Part shown: in pieces, positions 18,080 through 21,850 of the stretch | How positions within the stretch are numbered: the first letter of the stretch is position 1 | Layout: every line of letters starts with the position of its first letter | Assembly: GCA_017549185.1 (NCBI GenBank) | Contig: JAFYVJ010000065.1 | Span: 1-37,171 of the forward strand | Direction: 5' to 3' | DNA length: 37,171 bases | Source of the DNA: Roseburia sp. | GTDB taxonomy: Bacteria; Bacillota; Clostridia; Lachnospirales; Lachnospiraceae | Translations under genes and position numbers: made by a program | Notes under the pieces: model-generated | What the model saw: the letters and a program-made list of their open reading frames with translations, nothing else | What the model was told of the DNA's origin: nothing | Databases searched by the model: none

Positions 18080-19240
18080 TCATGTAATTAAAACAATATA
18101 TATATTCGTTGTTGCTATTTCCTTAAATTTTGATTTGTCGGTCTGTTTCTTAAATTCTACATATGCTTCTTGTCTTTCGTATGTAGCATTTGGAATTAAA
18201 TAGTTCTCAATATCTTTTGTGCTTATATTAGGTTGTGAACATCCAATACTGCAAGTTTCAACATATCTTGTAAAATCATCTGTCATTAAACAACCATATA
18301 TAAACTCAAGAAAAACTGATTTTTCTTTTTTTGCAACAATTCTACCCACTCTTTGATTTAAAAGGCAAGGCAAATCGCTCGGTTTAACAATACAAGCCTT
18401 TACATTTCCTAATGATTGGATCATCGGACGGGTTAGAGCAATAACAATATCGCCCTCATTTAACATAAATTTTGAATATTTTTCATCAAATCCTTCAGGC
18501 AAATAATTGGTTGTTTCCCAACTTACATTATCTAAATACACATTTCCTATCTGCAAAATTTTTATTGCACCATCATTAGAAATGTCACCACTTTTAAATG
18601 AATACCCACCTGTGACATTGCACATTTCTCTAATAGGAATTTTATTTTCCTCACTACCAAAGAGCTCGACAAATCGGGCTTTGATAAGATTATCTAAATT
18701 ATTTAATTCCTGATTTCGATTACTAATAATGTTTTGAATTTTACCAAATAATTCAACAATTTTTTTTTGCTTTTCTAATTTAGGCATTGGTATCTCAATA
18801 TCTCCGACATCTTTCAATGACAGATTCAACTGAGCCACGCCCTGTTTTTTTCTTTCAATCTGTTCTTTTACGATATTGGAAGTTAAAATCAACTTAATAT
18901 ATGGCAAATGAACATTTTCATCGTGTATTCTAATTATCGCCAAGGCTTGATTTGTATTGGCAGGTAACATTTCCTCCGTCACGATTGCTACACGTCCAAT
19001 CGCCCCGGCAATAGAAAACAAAACATCTCCACACTCTAGTTGTGAACGTTTTAATTTATCATTACACTCCTCAGAAATATGTGTAACTTTGTCTGCAATA
19101 AAGCAGCCATTCTCATCAAAACATTCTATTTTCAAAAAATTTACACCTATATCCTGAAATTCGTATCCCAACGTGGTTGGTGTAGTACCTTTGGTAATTA
19201 CTTTTGCAATATTAGCAATTTTTACCAGTGTATCACTCAT
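18080..19240 (-). CDS. hsdS: Type I restriction specificity subunit, second copy, altered C-terminus
   Basis: This is a 386-residue specificity subunit with two target-recognition domains. The first ends in the conserved helix NRNQELNNLDNLIKARFVELFG, and the second begins YSFKSGDISNDG. After the second conserved block start (KKQTDKSKF) the sequence changes to KEIATTNIYIVLIT and stops. The roughly 20-residue C-terminal helix seen in the other copy (QKALDEAQLLFDSLMQKYFG) is therefore missing. It may be a silent or donor cassette, or a weak subunit. The ATG at 19240 has GGAGA eight bases upstream. It is separated from the recombinase gene by about 470 bp and is followed by hsdR after 23 bp. A central 33-bp segment is shared with hsdS copy 1. 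Confidence 0.88.
   Translation of the reverse strand: MSDTLVKIANIAKVITKGTTPTTLGYEFQDIGVNFLKIECFDENGCFIADKVTHISEECNDKLKRSQLECGDVLFSIAGAIGRVAIVTEEMLPANTNQALAIIRIHDENVHLPYIKLILTSNIVKEQIERKKQGVAQLNLSLKDVGDIEIPMPKLEKQKKIVELFGKIQNIISNRNQELNNLDNLIKARFVELFGSEENKIPIREMCNVTGGYSFKSGDISNDGAIKILQIGNVYLDNVSWETTNYLPEGFDEKYSKFMLNEGDIVIALTRPMIQSLGNVKACIVKPSDLPCLLNQRVGRIVAKKEKSVFLEFIYGCLMTDDFTRYVETCSIGCSQPNISTKDIENYLIPNATYERQEAYVEFKKQTDKSKFKEIATTNIYIVLIT
18656..18688 (-). repeat. hsdS central direct repeat, copy in hsdS2
   Basis: This 33-bp segment matches 21275-21307 at 31 of 33 positions in the same orientation, including 23 identical bases in a row (18663-18685). It encodes the LIKARFVELFG helix between the two recognition domains. 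A shorter 13-bp match (18128-18140 versus 20810-20822) marks the DKSK block at the gene ends. These are likely sites of hsdS domain exchange. Confidence 0.85.
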
Positions 19241-19437
19241 CTTATCATCTCCACAAATCTAAATATTCTTATTGATTATCGAACGTTTGTTTGTTATAAT
19301 ATATTCAGGTGCTACCACACATTGACGTGTGTATGACATATCTCTATGTCTGGCGGTTCGCTTCTTGCGGAGAGTTCATAGCTCCGATTACATAGATTCA
19401 TCCCTTTAGGGAAATCTTGGAAAGGAGACTATTATAT
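19241..19437 (+). ncRNA. Structured leader of the 33-aa peptide mRNA
   Basis: From the predicted start near 19307 the plus-strand leader is about 130 bases and rich in short stems. These include ACAC-GTGT at 19317-19330, GACATA/TATGTC (19335-19350) and TCCC/GGGA (about 19401-19412). CCTTT at 19403-19407 can pair with the AAAGG of the ribosome binding site (19421-19425), which would hide it. No minus-strand gene lies here apart from the upstream region of hsdS2. The folding is my reading by eye, not a computed structure. Confidence 0.5.
19272..19300 (+). promoter_or_regulatory. Promoter of the 33-aa peptide gene
   Basis: There is a TTGATT -35 (19272-19277), a 17-base spacer and a TATAAT -10 (19295-19300), with TG at 19292-19293 (extended -10). 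It is one of the best promoter matches in the window and points against all neighbouring genes. Confidence 0.8.
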
Positions 19438-19539
19438 ATGCTTACCATAAGTGACCTTATTGCTGTAATTGCACTTTGTGCTACCTTTTATAGTCTTGGT
19501 TATCTGCATGGGCAGCATGATTCCAAGACGCAAAAATAA
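19438..19539 (+). CDS. 33-residue hydrophobic membrane peptide, candidate type I toxin
   Basis: This is a small plus-strand gene in an otherwise minus-strand operon. ATG at 19438 follows AAAGGAG (19421-19427), and TAA is at 19537-19539. The peptide begins MLTISDLIAVIALCATFY, has one predicted membrane segment (about residues 6-23) and ends in a charged tail (HDSKTQK). Length, layout and tail resemble Fst/Ldr-type toxins, though I do not recognise a named family with certainty. Support for a real gene is the promoter, ribosome binding site, terminator overlapping the stop, and structured leader. It sits between the recombinase and hsdS2, so it could act as an addiction element for the hsd locus, or be a small membrane protein of other function. 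Confidence 0.65.
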   Translation: MLTISDLIAVIALCATFYSLGYLHGQHDSKTQK

Positions 19540-19574
19540 CCGCCCTGTCCTGAGAAAACAAGCGGTTATTTTTT
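19532..19574 (+). terminator. Terminator overlapping the peptide stop codon, possibly bidirectional
   Basis: AAAAATAACCGC at 19532-19543 pairs with 19562-19573 (12 bp, 18-base loop), followed by a T on the plus strand. The stem contains the TAA stop. On the minus strand the same stem also ends in five T, so it could stop a convergent antisense RNA or transcription of the hsd operon from the right. Confidence 0.8.
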
Positions 19575-19583
19575 AATGACCTT

Positions 19584-19592
19584 ATTATATCA
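19584..19592 (-). promoter_or_regulatory. Possible antisense promoter facing the peptide gene
   Basis: On the minus strand TGATATAAT is an extended -10; the -35 region 17 bases upstream (CTACCG) is poor. Transcription would start near 19577 and cross the shared terminator stem and then the peptide gene. It could give a short antisense RNA or drive hsdS2. Confidence 0.35.
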
Positions 19593-19693
19593 GGCGAACC
19601 GTCTATCGGTAGCACCTTTTCTATAATTATATTACCACTACACTTTCTCTGTGTCAACTTTACCTATATTCATTTTTCTTTTACAAACAATGT

Positions 19694-19712: not shown

Positions 19713-20681
19713 TTACGCAATGAATTTCTGATGGGATGTTTTTACATTTGTTTGATTTACTATTGCATATTTCATTGTAGTGTCAATCTGTGAATGACCT
19801 AATAATTTTTGCACCTGCTCAATTGGCATCCCTTTGTCAATCGCTCTTGTAGCCATTGTTCGTCTAAATTTGTGTGGGTGAATTTTATCCATACTCAACA
19901 ATCTACCTAATTTGCGCATACGGATTTCCACACCACTTATTTTCAACCTATCAAAAGGTGCATCCAATGTAACAAACAGTGCTGGATTATCATCTTTCCT
20001 GCTGCTTAAATATGATTGCAAATGAATTTTGGCCTTAGCATCAAAATATACCCTTCTTTCCTTATCACCCTTGCCAAACACGACGCATTCTCTCGCCTCA
20101 AAGTCTATATCTGAAATGTTCAAATTTACCAACTCTCCAACTCGAATTCCGGTTGAATACAATAAATCAATAATTGCCAAATCTCTTTGGCAATTACACT
20201 TATCACGCAATTGCTCAATAGCCTCATCTGAAATCGTTTCCTTAACCTGTTGTTTCGTTTTAATTTTATGAATTCTTCGCATAGGACTCTTTAGTAAATA
20301 GTCCTCTTCCTCTAACCACGAAAAGAAACTTGAAATATTACGTCTAACATTATCTACCGTTACTTTACTACAATCATTAATTTGCTGATATTCAACCAGA
20401 TAATGCCTTATTTCCTCAGTAGTAATCTTTCGAATTGGCGTAGGAATGGTAAGTAATAATTTTTCTATGGTTGTCCTATAGTATTGAATTGTTCGTTCAG
20501 AGCACCCCTCAATTTGCTTCGCATCCAAAAAAAGCTGCAAATATTCTTGATTACTAATTTCTTTTCTTTCGGATTCATGCTCAGAAAATGTCTGTAATAA
20601 TACCTCTTGCAACTTTTTCATTTGCGATACATTCAGATATTCCGCCATTTCATTGATGATTTTTACTACCTTTTCTTCCAT
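19713..20681 (-). CDS. Tyrosine recombinase/integrase (XerC/D type), hsdS shuffling candidate
   Basis: This is a 322-residue site-specific recombinase. An N-terminal SAM-like core-binding domain (about 43-130) is followed by the catalytic domain. The active-site residues are all visible: R180 in TGIRVGELVNL, K204 in GKGDKERRV, H270 and R273 in HPHKFRRT, H296 in LLGHSQIDTT, and the nucleophile Y305 in MKYA. It is therefore probably active. The ATG at 20681 has AAAGGAGA upstream, but that site lies in the loop of a 9-bp hairpin, which may restrain translation. It lies 56 bp after hsdS1. Recombinases in such loci switch type I specificity by exchanging hsdS halves. Confidence 0.93.
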   Translation of the reverse strand: MEEKVVKIINEMAEYLNVSQMKKLQEVLLQTFSEHESERKEISNQEYLQLFLDAKQIEGCSERTIQYYRTTIEKLLLTIPTPIRKITTEEIRHYLVEYQQINDCSKVTVDNVRRNISSFFSWLEEEDYLLKSPMRRIHKIKTKQQVKETISDEAIEQLRDKCNCQRDLAIIDLLYSTGIRVGELVNLNISDIDFEARECVVFGKGDKERRVYFDAKAKIHLQSYLSSRKDDNPALFVTLDAPFDRLKISGVEIRMRKLGRLLSMDKIHPHKFRRTMATRAIDKGMPIEQVQKLLGHSQIDTTMKYAIVNQTNVKTSHQKFIA

Positions 20682-20737: not shown

Positions 20738-21850
20738 TTATCCAAAATATTTTTGCATCAAACTATCAAATAACAATTGTGCTTCATCCAAAGCTTTCTG
20801 CACAGCAACTTTTGATTTGTCGACTTGCGTAACAAAATCAGCAAAGTTATTTTGCTCAGTTATAGGAACCCTTAGAATCTGTATCTCTTGTAAGTTCTTT
20901 ACTGATAATCCTGGTTGTGCTGCTCCTGTTTGATATCTTTTCAAATCAAGATTAATCAAAAGCTGATTCAACCAGATGCTATTCATCTCTACTATTGGTG
21001 TAACTAATAATGCATGTTCAGTATTTTTAAATTTACCCTTTGCATACTGAACATTTCCACTTAAGGCACCTTGTCTACCCACAAGGGAATACTCACCATC
21101 TTGGTTGTATTCAGCCACATAACCTCTAATTCCGTTTCCACCATAACACGGATAACTATGTGTTTTGTTAGGTTCATCTGAAATATCTGATGCAGCTGTA
21201 AAATCTCCTGCTTTTAATATTAGAACATTTTTTAAATCTTTTGTTTCAAGACATTTAGTATTAGTAATGGGATCACCAAACAGCTCGACAAATCGGGCTT
21301 TGATGAGTTCGTCCAGTTTCTTAATTTCCTGTTTTCTATGTTCAATTATTGATTGTACACATGAGATCACATGAACTATCTCTTCGTTCTTAACTTCATC
21401 ATAAACACGTAAATCAAGAGTATCTATATGTTCATTTCTTATATTATTGATATTAGCACCTATAGCTACAGCAGAAATTTTACTTCGATACGTATTGCTC
21501 TGGAAATATTTTCCAAGATATCTTGCAAACTCCTCTTGAGGACGCACCACCTTACAAAAGGCGCCAAATGTACACTCTGTTTCAAAATCCACACTTGCTG
21601 CTTTTCCTACAAGTTGCTTACTACCACTCGAAGCACATACAAGAATGTCACCTCTTTTTAAATACTGTTCTTTTGACACCTTACTTTTATCAACATATAC
21701 AACATCATCAAAATTAATTTTTCCATCATCTATATTATTGGCCCTAAGCAAAATCACAGATGAATCGTTTAGAGAATCATGCAAATCGTCTGGCTTATAC
21801 GACACCCCTCGAACTTGATTTGCAACTTCTTGTATCTTTAATGTTTTCAT
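20738..21850 (-). CDS. hsdS: Type I restriction specificity subunit, first (expressed) copy
   Basis: This is a 370-residue subunit with two recognition domains, each followed by a conserved helix: EHRKQEIKKLDELIKARFVELFG in the centre and TQVDKSKVAVQKALDEAQLL with LFDSLMQKYFG at the end. The layout is complete, unlike copy 2. It determines the DNA target of both methylation and restriction by binding two HsdM and HsdR. The ATG at 21850 has AGGGATGAAG upstream. It lies 55 bp after hsdM, the normal partner position, so this copy is likely the active one. Confidence 0.93.
   Translation of the reverse strand: MKTLKIQEVANQVRGVSYKPDDLHDSLNDSSVILLRANNIDDGKINFDDVVYVDKSKVSKEQYLKRGDILVCASSGSKQLVGKAASVDFETECTFGAFCKVVRPQEEFARYLGKYFQSNTYRSKISAVAIGANINNIRNEHIDTLDLRVYDEVKNEEIVHVISCVQSIIEHRKQEIKKLDELIKARFVELFGDPITNTKCLETKDLKNVLILKAGDFTAASDISDEPNKTHSYPCYGGNGIRGYVAEYNQDGEYSLVGRQGALSGNVQYAKGKFKNTEHALLVTPIVEMNSIWLNQLLINLDLKRYQTGAAQPGLSVKNLQEIQILRVPITEQNNFADFVTQVDKSKVAVQKALDEAQLLFDSLMQKYFG
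21275..21307 (-). repeat. hsdS central direct repeat, copy in hsdS1
   Basis: This is the partner of 18656-18688 (31 of 33 identical; 23 in a row at 21282-21304). Exchange between the two would join the first domain of hsdS1 to the second domain of hsdS2 and excise about 2.6 kb carrying the recombinase and the peptide gene. Confidence 0.85.

What the first reader, a model, noticed from the sequence alone, without database searches (positions are those of the whole stretch)
19272..19617. Opposite-strand 33-aa membrane peptide inside the type I restriction operon, with type I toxin layout
Seen directly: a near-consensus promoter, a roughly 130-base stem-rich leader, a good ribosome binding site, a 33-codon ORF with one membrane helix and a charged tail, and a terminator overlapping the stop. 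Type I toxins such as Fst share this size and layout. Inside an hsd locus it could act as an addiction module, or be lost with the recombinase upon hsdS exchange. The toxin role is inference; the family is not one I can name.
Basis: partly seen in the sequence, partly recalled or inferred. Interest (0 to 1): 0.78.

Follow-up and report, generated by a model that had tools for sequence, protein, structure and literature searches.

The report
Likely toxin peptide with antisense RNA
A tiny membrane-peptide gene sits between two restriction-locus genes and, judging by its relatives in gut bacteria, is one copy of a widespread module that pairs a probable self-toxin with a small antisense RNA that would keep it silent.

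Summary
In detail: plus-strand promoter 19272-19300, 131-nt leader, RBS, 33-codon ORF 19438-19539, terminator overlapping the stop. Peptide and antisense element are conserved together. A profile finds the peptide in 101 of 397 genomes of the host's family, own genome included. The antisense 5' element follows the ORF in 131 of 138 copies. pN/pS is 0.096. Of 130 copies with full context, 13 keep the antisense half but lost the toxin's start signals; 3 show the reverse, all abnormal. The same RNA scaffold carries other hydrophobic peptides, one a Hol_Tox (PF16935) match. It works like Fst/par type I toxin-antitoxin systems but differs in toxin sequence, lacks conserved direct repeats, and has the same 5' hairpin arms on both RNAs. 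The restriction link is not conserved: 0 of 29 related recombinase loci examined carry it. Transcription and toxicity are inferred, not tested.

The parts
19272..19300 (+). RNA I (toxin mRNA) promoter, TTGATT-17-TATAAT
   Evidence: aligned in close relatives; promoter match mean 9.2 of 12 vs 8.0 in shuffles over 101 copies
19307..19437 (+). structured 5' leader of RNA I
19307..19316 (+). left arm L1 of the RNA I 5' element (AGGTGCTACC)
19354..19361 (+). right arm R1 of the RNA I 5' element (CGGTTCGC); CTTCTT at 19361-19366 can pair with the ribosome binding site
19368..19386 (+). leader hairpin P2 (CGGAG/CTCCG)
   Evidence: arms that change together in the family
19422..19427 (+). ribosome binding site AAGGAG
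19438..19539 (+). 33-codon ORF, membrane peptide (probable toxin), stop 19537-19539
19532..19573 (.). bidirectional intrinsic terminator overlapping the stop codon
   Evidence: stop followed directly by CCGCC in 120 of 138 copies, stem of 7 bp or more there in 92 of 133
19530..19621 (-). RNA II, predicted antisense RNA of about 90 nt, read 19621 to 19530 (ends inferred)
19594..19617 (-). 5' hairpin of RNA II (arms L2 19617-19608, R2 19601-19594), same arm sequences as RNA I
19629..19657 (-). RNA II promoter, TTGACA-17-TAATAT
   Evidence: exact TTGACA in this stretch in 63 of 103 copies vs 1 of 103 shuffled

Best explanation
It is a type I toxin-antitoxin-like module. RNA I (about 270 nt) encodes a 33-residue peptide with one membrane helix that would stop growth if made freely. 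Its leader can fold so that the ribosome binding site is masked. RNA II, a short antisense RNA from the facing promoter, ends in the same terminator, so about the last 50 nt of RNA I are fully complementary to RNA II; pairing probably starts there and may extend through the 5' hairpins, keeping the toxin mRNA silent or marking it for decay. If the DNA is lost or RNA II transcription stops, RNA I (assumed to be the more stable) is translated. In this window the module is an independent insertion between a recombinase and hsdS, not a dedicated part of the restriction system. Shown by sequence and comparison: both promoter sequences, shared terminator, conserved leader, coding selection, joint conservation, lopsided decay. 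Inferred: transcription, toxicity, RNA-RNA pairing, order of events.
For: ORF and antisense 5' element together in 131 of 138 copies found by protein alone; RNA II promoter; pN/pS 0.096 over 359 non-independent pairs of 118 ORFs; leader hairpin with arms that change together and a stretch complementary to the ribosome binding site (18.2 vs 12.3 for shuffled; cognate better than mismatched, p 0.0008, n 96); decay 13 vs 3, the 3 abnormal; same RNA scaffold with other hydrophobic peptides in 29 of 44 non-family copies, one of ten tested above the Hol_Tox cut-off (29.2 vs 23.3 bits) and one just below (21.4); profile similarity to the Hol_Tox-like set above 200 of 200 column shuffles; several copies in 6 loci; copies in a phage record, predicted viral contigs and a megaplasmid.
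Against: No expression or toxicity data. The window peptide matches no known toxin family. Cognate RNA I/RNA II pairs do not pair better than mismatched pairs (-23.05 vs -22.88 kcal/mol, median rank 44 of 97); no start-codon complementarity as in par is conserved (14.6 vs 14.1 over 101 copies). RNA II hairpin covariation is weak (89.0% standard pairs vs 87.5% shuffled). The best leader stem is only a little longer than in shuffles (6.9 vs 6.1), and RNAalifold gave no good consensus fold. None of the comparisons was corrected for relatedness.
Confidence: 0.75

Rival explanations
1. A harmless or regulatory membrane peptide (for example a modulator of a membrane protein) whose level is tuned by an antisense RNA, with no killing role.
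For: Toxicity untested; no toxin family match; weak resemblance to BcsF, a small membrane protein, below its cut-off.
Against: Scattered distribution in unrelated contexts, sometimes in several copies, decay asymmetry and a scaffold shared with Hol_Tox-type peptides fit a toxin better than a fixed partner protein.
Confidence: 0.17
2. A guard or addiction device dedicated to the type I restriction locus, lost or kept with hsdS switching.
For: Position between hsdS and the recombinase; the hsdS genes share a 65-nt direct repeat whose recombination would remove recombinase and module; 3 of 138 neighbouring proteins scanned elsewhere are HsdS (no background rate known).
Against: 0 of 29 other related recombinase loci examined carry it; in three of them the next gene starts 4, 45 and 144 bp after the recombinase against 472 bp here; the neighbours elsewhere are mixed.
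Confidence: 0.04
3. A small mobile inverted-repeat element (MITE-like) whose ends are the matching GGTGCTACC repeats, with the ORF as passenger.
For: Inverted repeats near both ends; copies in unrelated places.
Against: Conservation extends past the repeats to both -35 boxes, and no common end sequence was found beyond them; the repeats coincide with the two predicted RNA 5' ends; the ORF is under purifying selection.
Confidence: 0.03

Closest known systems
Fst/par type I toxin-antitoxin family (par of pAD1)
   Same: 33-residue membrane toxin, convergent promoters, shared bidirectional terminator, leader that masks the ribosome binding site, 5'-end helix, short antisense RNA (passages of PMC7472228)
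   Different: No Fst match in Pfam or NCBIfam at E up to 1; no [PDST]xxxG motif in the window peptide; no conserved complementarity across the start codon; here the two RNAs begin with the same hairpin arms; antisense about 90 nt against the ~40 nt that review gives
Hol_Tox, putative holin-like toxin (PF16935)
   Same: Peptides above or near its cut-off occupy the same RNA scaffold; remote profile similarity resting on the first ten columns
   Different: The window peptide does not match PF16935 at E up to 1; different core (LGYxxG) and tail
C. difficile type I modules (CD2517.1-RCd8 and others)
   Same: Convergent overlapping toxin and antisense genes in Clostridia, in prophages and near CRISPR arrays (passages of PMC6563280)
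   Different: Toxins of 34-53 residues described as lacking homology to other known type I toxins; I made no sequence comparison with them
SymE/SymR
   Same: Antisense-controlled toxin found with restriction-modification genes in mobile islands (passages of PMC1891008)
   Different: A larger AbrB-fold protein; here the link to restriction genes is not recurrent

Membership tests
type I toxin-antitoxin (class) | small hydrophobic peptide gene under coding selection | tested here: met
   hydropathy 2.1 over the best 17 residues; pN/pS 0.096
type I toxin-antitoxin (class) | overlapping antisense RNA with its own promoter | tested here: inconclusive
   promoter, 5' element and shared terminator present and conserved; transcription not shown
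type I toxin-antitoxin (class) | peptide toxic when expressed and neutralised by the antisense RNA | not testable with these tools
   needs bench work
Fst/par | convergent promoters and shared bidirectional terminator | tested here: met
   as sequence features
Fst/par | direct repeats giving complementarity at the translation start | tested here: not met
   no cognate excess over 101 copies; the window alone has a 10-nt repeat that scores above all its mismatched partners
Fst/par | Fst toxin sequence and [PDST]xxxG motif | tested here: not met
   no Fst match at E up to 1; motif absent by reading the window peptide
Hol_Tox PF16935 | profile match above the gathering score | tested here: not met
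   window peptide no match at E up to 1; only remote profile similarity
known Rfam antisense or leader RNA | match at gathering score | tested here: not met
   0 in the window; none at the module in 14 related loci

The most novel reading that the evidence does not exclude
One conserved pair of RNA parts (a toxin-mRNA leader and an antisense RNA that begin with the same hairpin arms) serves as an interchangeable control cassette for several unrelated membrane-peptide toxins across Lachnospiraceae; and because these arms are nearly the same in every copy, the antisense RNA of one module can silence the toxin mRNA of another, making a genome-wide network and not isolated pairs.
Probability: 0.15. 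Interest if true: 0.8.

Novelty: new variant of a known kind. Interest (0 to 1): 0.62.

Why it matters
If right, about a quarter of the sampled genomes of a large gut-bacterial family (101 of 397) carry a toxin-antitoxin type for which I found no family model or paper, and whose RNA scaffold is shared by different toxins. It offers a case for how antisense antitoxins tolerate toxin replacement, and the RNA 5' element is a ready handle for finding more toxins.

Tried and rejected
Direct repeats of par type: the window has a 10-nt repeat TGACCTTATT (19452 and 19577) and it outscored all its mismatched partners, but over 101 copies linker-to-start complementarity is not above mismatched pairs (14.6 vs 14.1; 8.9% of copies in the top 5%), so it is not a family feature; a contact special to this copy is not excluded. 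Cognate specificity of the whole duplex: not found. Antisense arm R2 pairing with the ribosome binding site: none (12.8 vs 12.9 mismatched). RNAalifold on 95 RNA II sequences and on 87 of 99 leaders gave poor folds; helices were then counted in registers that I set by hand. Rfam: nothing; only far below cut-offs. PADLOC and Pfam on neighbours: 138 of 209 neighbour proteins typed in, the window's own two left out; HTH_3 in 10, HsdS in 3; without a background rate I claim no enrichment. Mobile-element ends: no shared end sequence. Profile similarity to the Hol_Tox-like set: when the first ten columns were kept and the rest shuffled, scores reached 26.4, above the real 20.8, so the signal lies in the N-terminus only. 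Literature: 7 searches of the held open-access library listed no paper on this family; I saw passages only of PMC7472228, PMC10903887, PMC6563280 and PMC1891008 and search listings of the rest.

Full report
What is there. Between hsdS (18080-19240, minus) and a tyrosine recombinase (19713-20681, minus) lies a block of 386 bp from one -35 box to the other (19272-19657). On the plus strand it has a promoter (19272-19300), a leader from about 19307, AAGGAG, a 33-codon ORF 19438-19539 and a terminator whose left arm overlaps the stop codon. Promoter and terminator scans alone are at chance level, and the terminator scan does not list this terminator, whose loop is too long for it; the folded transcript beats 200 of 200 shuffles.

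The missed half. On the minus strand TTGACA-17-TAATAT (19657-19629) faces the block. The RNA it would make begins AAGGUGCUACCGAUAGACGGUUCGCC and folds into a 5' hairpin and the same terminator (z -4.4). RNA I begins AGGUGCUACC and later has GGCGGUUCGC, so the two RNAs share hairpin arms; in DNA this is an inverted repeat. Together the two RNAs gain about 58 kcal/mol on pairing, chiefly through a 53-nt full overlap as I drew the ends.

Family. The peptide finds two more copies in its own genome: L003, with both RNA elements, and L002, without them. It is in 24 of 145 relatives at E 0.01. A 24-row profile finds 101 of 397 genomes of the family at E 0.001 and 5 of 398 across the phylum at E 1e-6, of which three are of the same family; both tallies include the own genome. 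The exact antisense pattern is rarer: 29 of 397 family genomes and 2 of 398 phylum genomes, both of the family.

Joint conservation. From the protein-based loci 138 unique copies were taken. The antisense 5' element follows in 131 of 138, the RNA I 5' element precedes in 108, both in 103 (cut-off 13, best score in 20 shuffles per copy 13 and 14). In the 103 the antisense start lies a median 78 nt after the stop; two of the 7 without it are cut by a contig end. RNA II has an exact TTGACA in place in 63 of 103 against 1 of 103 shuffled. Stop codon and CCGCC are fused in 120 of 138. Single-difference codons are 2241 silent to 831 replacing, pN/pS 0.096.

RNA structure. Leaders carry a hairpin with loop ACUGUGA in 48 of 95 and arms that change together (CGGAGGG/CCCUCCG 20, CAGAGGG/CCCUCUG 16, CGCAAG/CUUGCG 2, CACAGG/CCUGUG 1), though mean best stem is 6.9 against 6.1 in shuffles. 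The stretch after R1 is complementary to the ribosome binding site (18.2; mismatched copies 17.3; shuffled 12.3; p 0.0008). Arms L and R are more alike between RNA I and RNA II of one copy than between copies (0 of 5000 permutations, n 101). None of this is corrected for relatedness. RNA II hairpin covariation is weak, start-codon complementarity is not conserved, and whole-duplex energies do not favour cognate pairs. The last point leaves room for cross-talk between copies.

Same scaffold, other peptides. The exact pattern gave 132 places, 127 in genome contigs and 5 in IMG/VR contigs. Of 123 with at least 200 nt upstream, 93 have the RNA I core and 116 a candidate ORF; 72 belong to the window's family and 44 do not; 29 of the 44 have the RNA I core and a hydrophobic ORF, 25 different peptides. 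The other 15 have no convincing small ORF. Of ten such peptides tested, one passes the Hol_Tox cut-off and one is just below it; a second set (MSDFELLSLV...) shows no relation to the window family. The window family resembles the Hol_Tox-like set (score 20.8, 0 of 200 full column shuffles as high), but only through the first ten columns.

Decay. Of 130 copies with full context 108 are complete. Fourteen keep RNA II but fail a simple start test; one of these just uses GTG and is dropped, leaving 13 that have lost the ribosome binding site, the start or both. Three keep a start but lack RNA II, and each is abnormal: two have altered C-terminal tails, one has lost its leader and has LGY changed to LRY. 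An antidote can outlive its toxin, the reverse is hard; this fits, with small numbers and a coarse test.

Restriction context. Of 33 other recombinase matches 29 had loci; none has the module, and 14 show an hsdS match within the stretch held. In three of them the next gene starts 4, 144 and 45 bp after the recombinase against 472 bp here. So the module entered this locus on its own. The two hsdS genes share a 65-nt direct repeat, so deletion of recombinase and module together is possible.

Verdict. A type I toxin-antitoxin-like module, par-like in layout but distinct in toxin sequence and RNA pairing elements, of a family for which I found no model and no paper in the searches named. Transcription and toxicity remain to be shown.

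Noticed in passing
window 18656-18720 and 21275-21339: The two hsdS genes share a 65-nt direct repeat (80%), so recombination would delete the recombinase and the module, not invert them.
   Followed up: partly
leaders of L160, L166, L189, L211, L215: Short hairpin inserts of similar make-up (with ACCG..AG and GAGACC-like stretches) sit inside the toxin leader, as if a small repeat element inserts there.
   Followed up: no
L294 (MT835527.1), L151, L152, L154, L155: An unverified phage record carries a module of the window's family; four IMG/VR contigs carry the scaffold with another peptide, MEIVEHID....
   Followed up: partly
L012 around the module: Similar stretches flank the module on both sides as a direct repeat of some tens of bases (by eye).
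   Followed up: no
flanking proteins of the copies: Cro/C1-type HTH proteins are the commonest neighbours (HTH_3 in 10 of 138 scanned).
   Followed up: no
L081 and G304 contig 33: A contig titled Bacteroidales has the same length (141650) as one placed in the window's family, so its title may be wrong.
   Followed up: no
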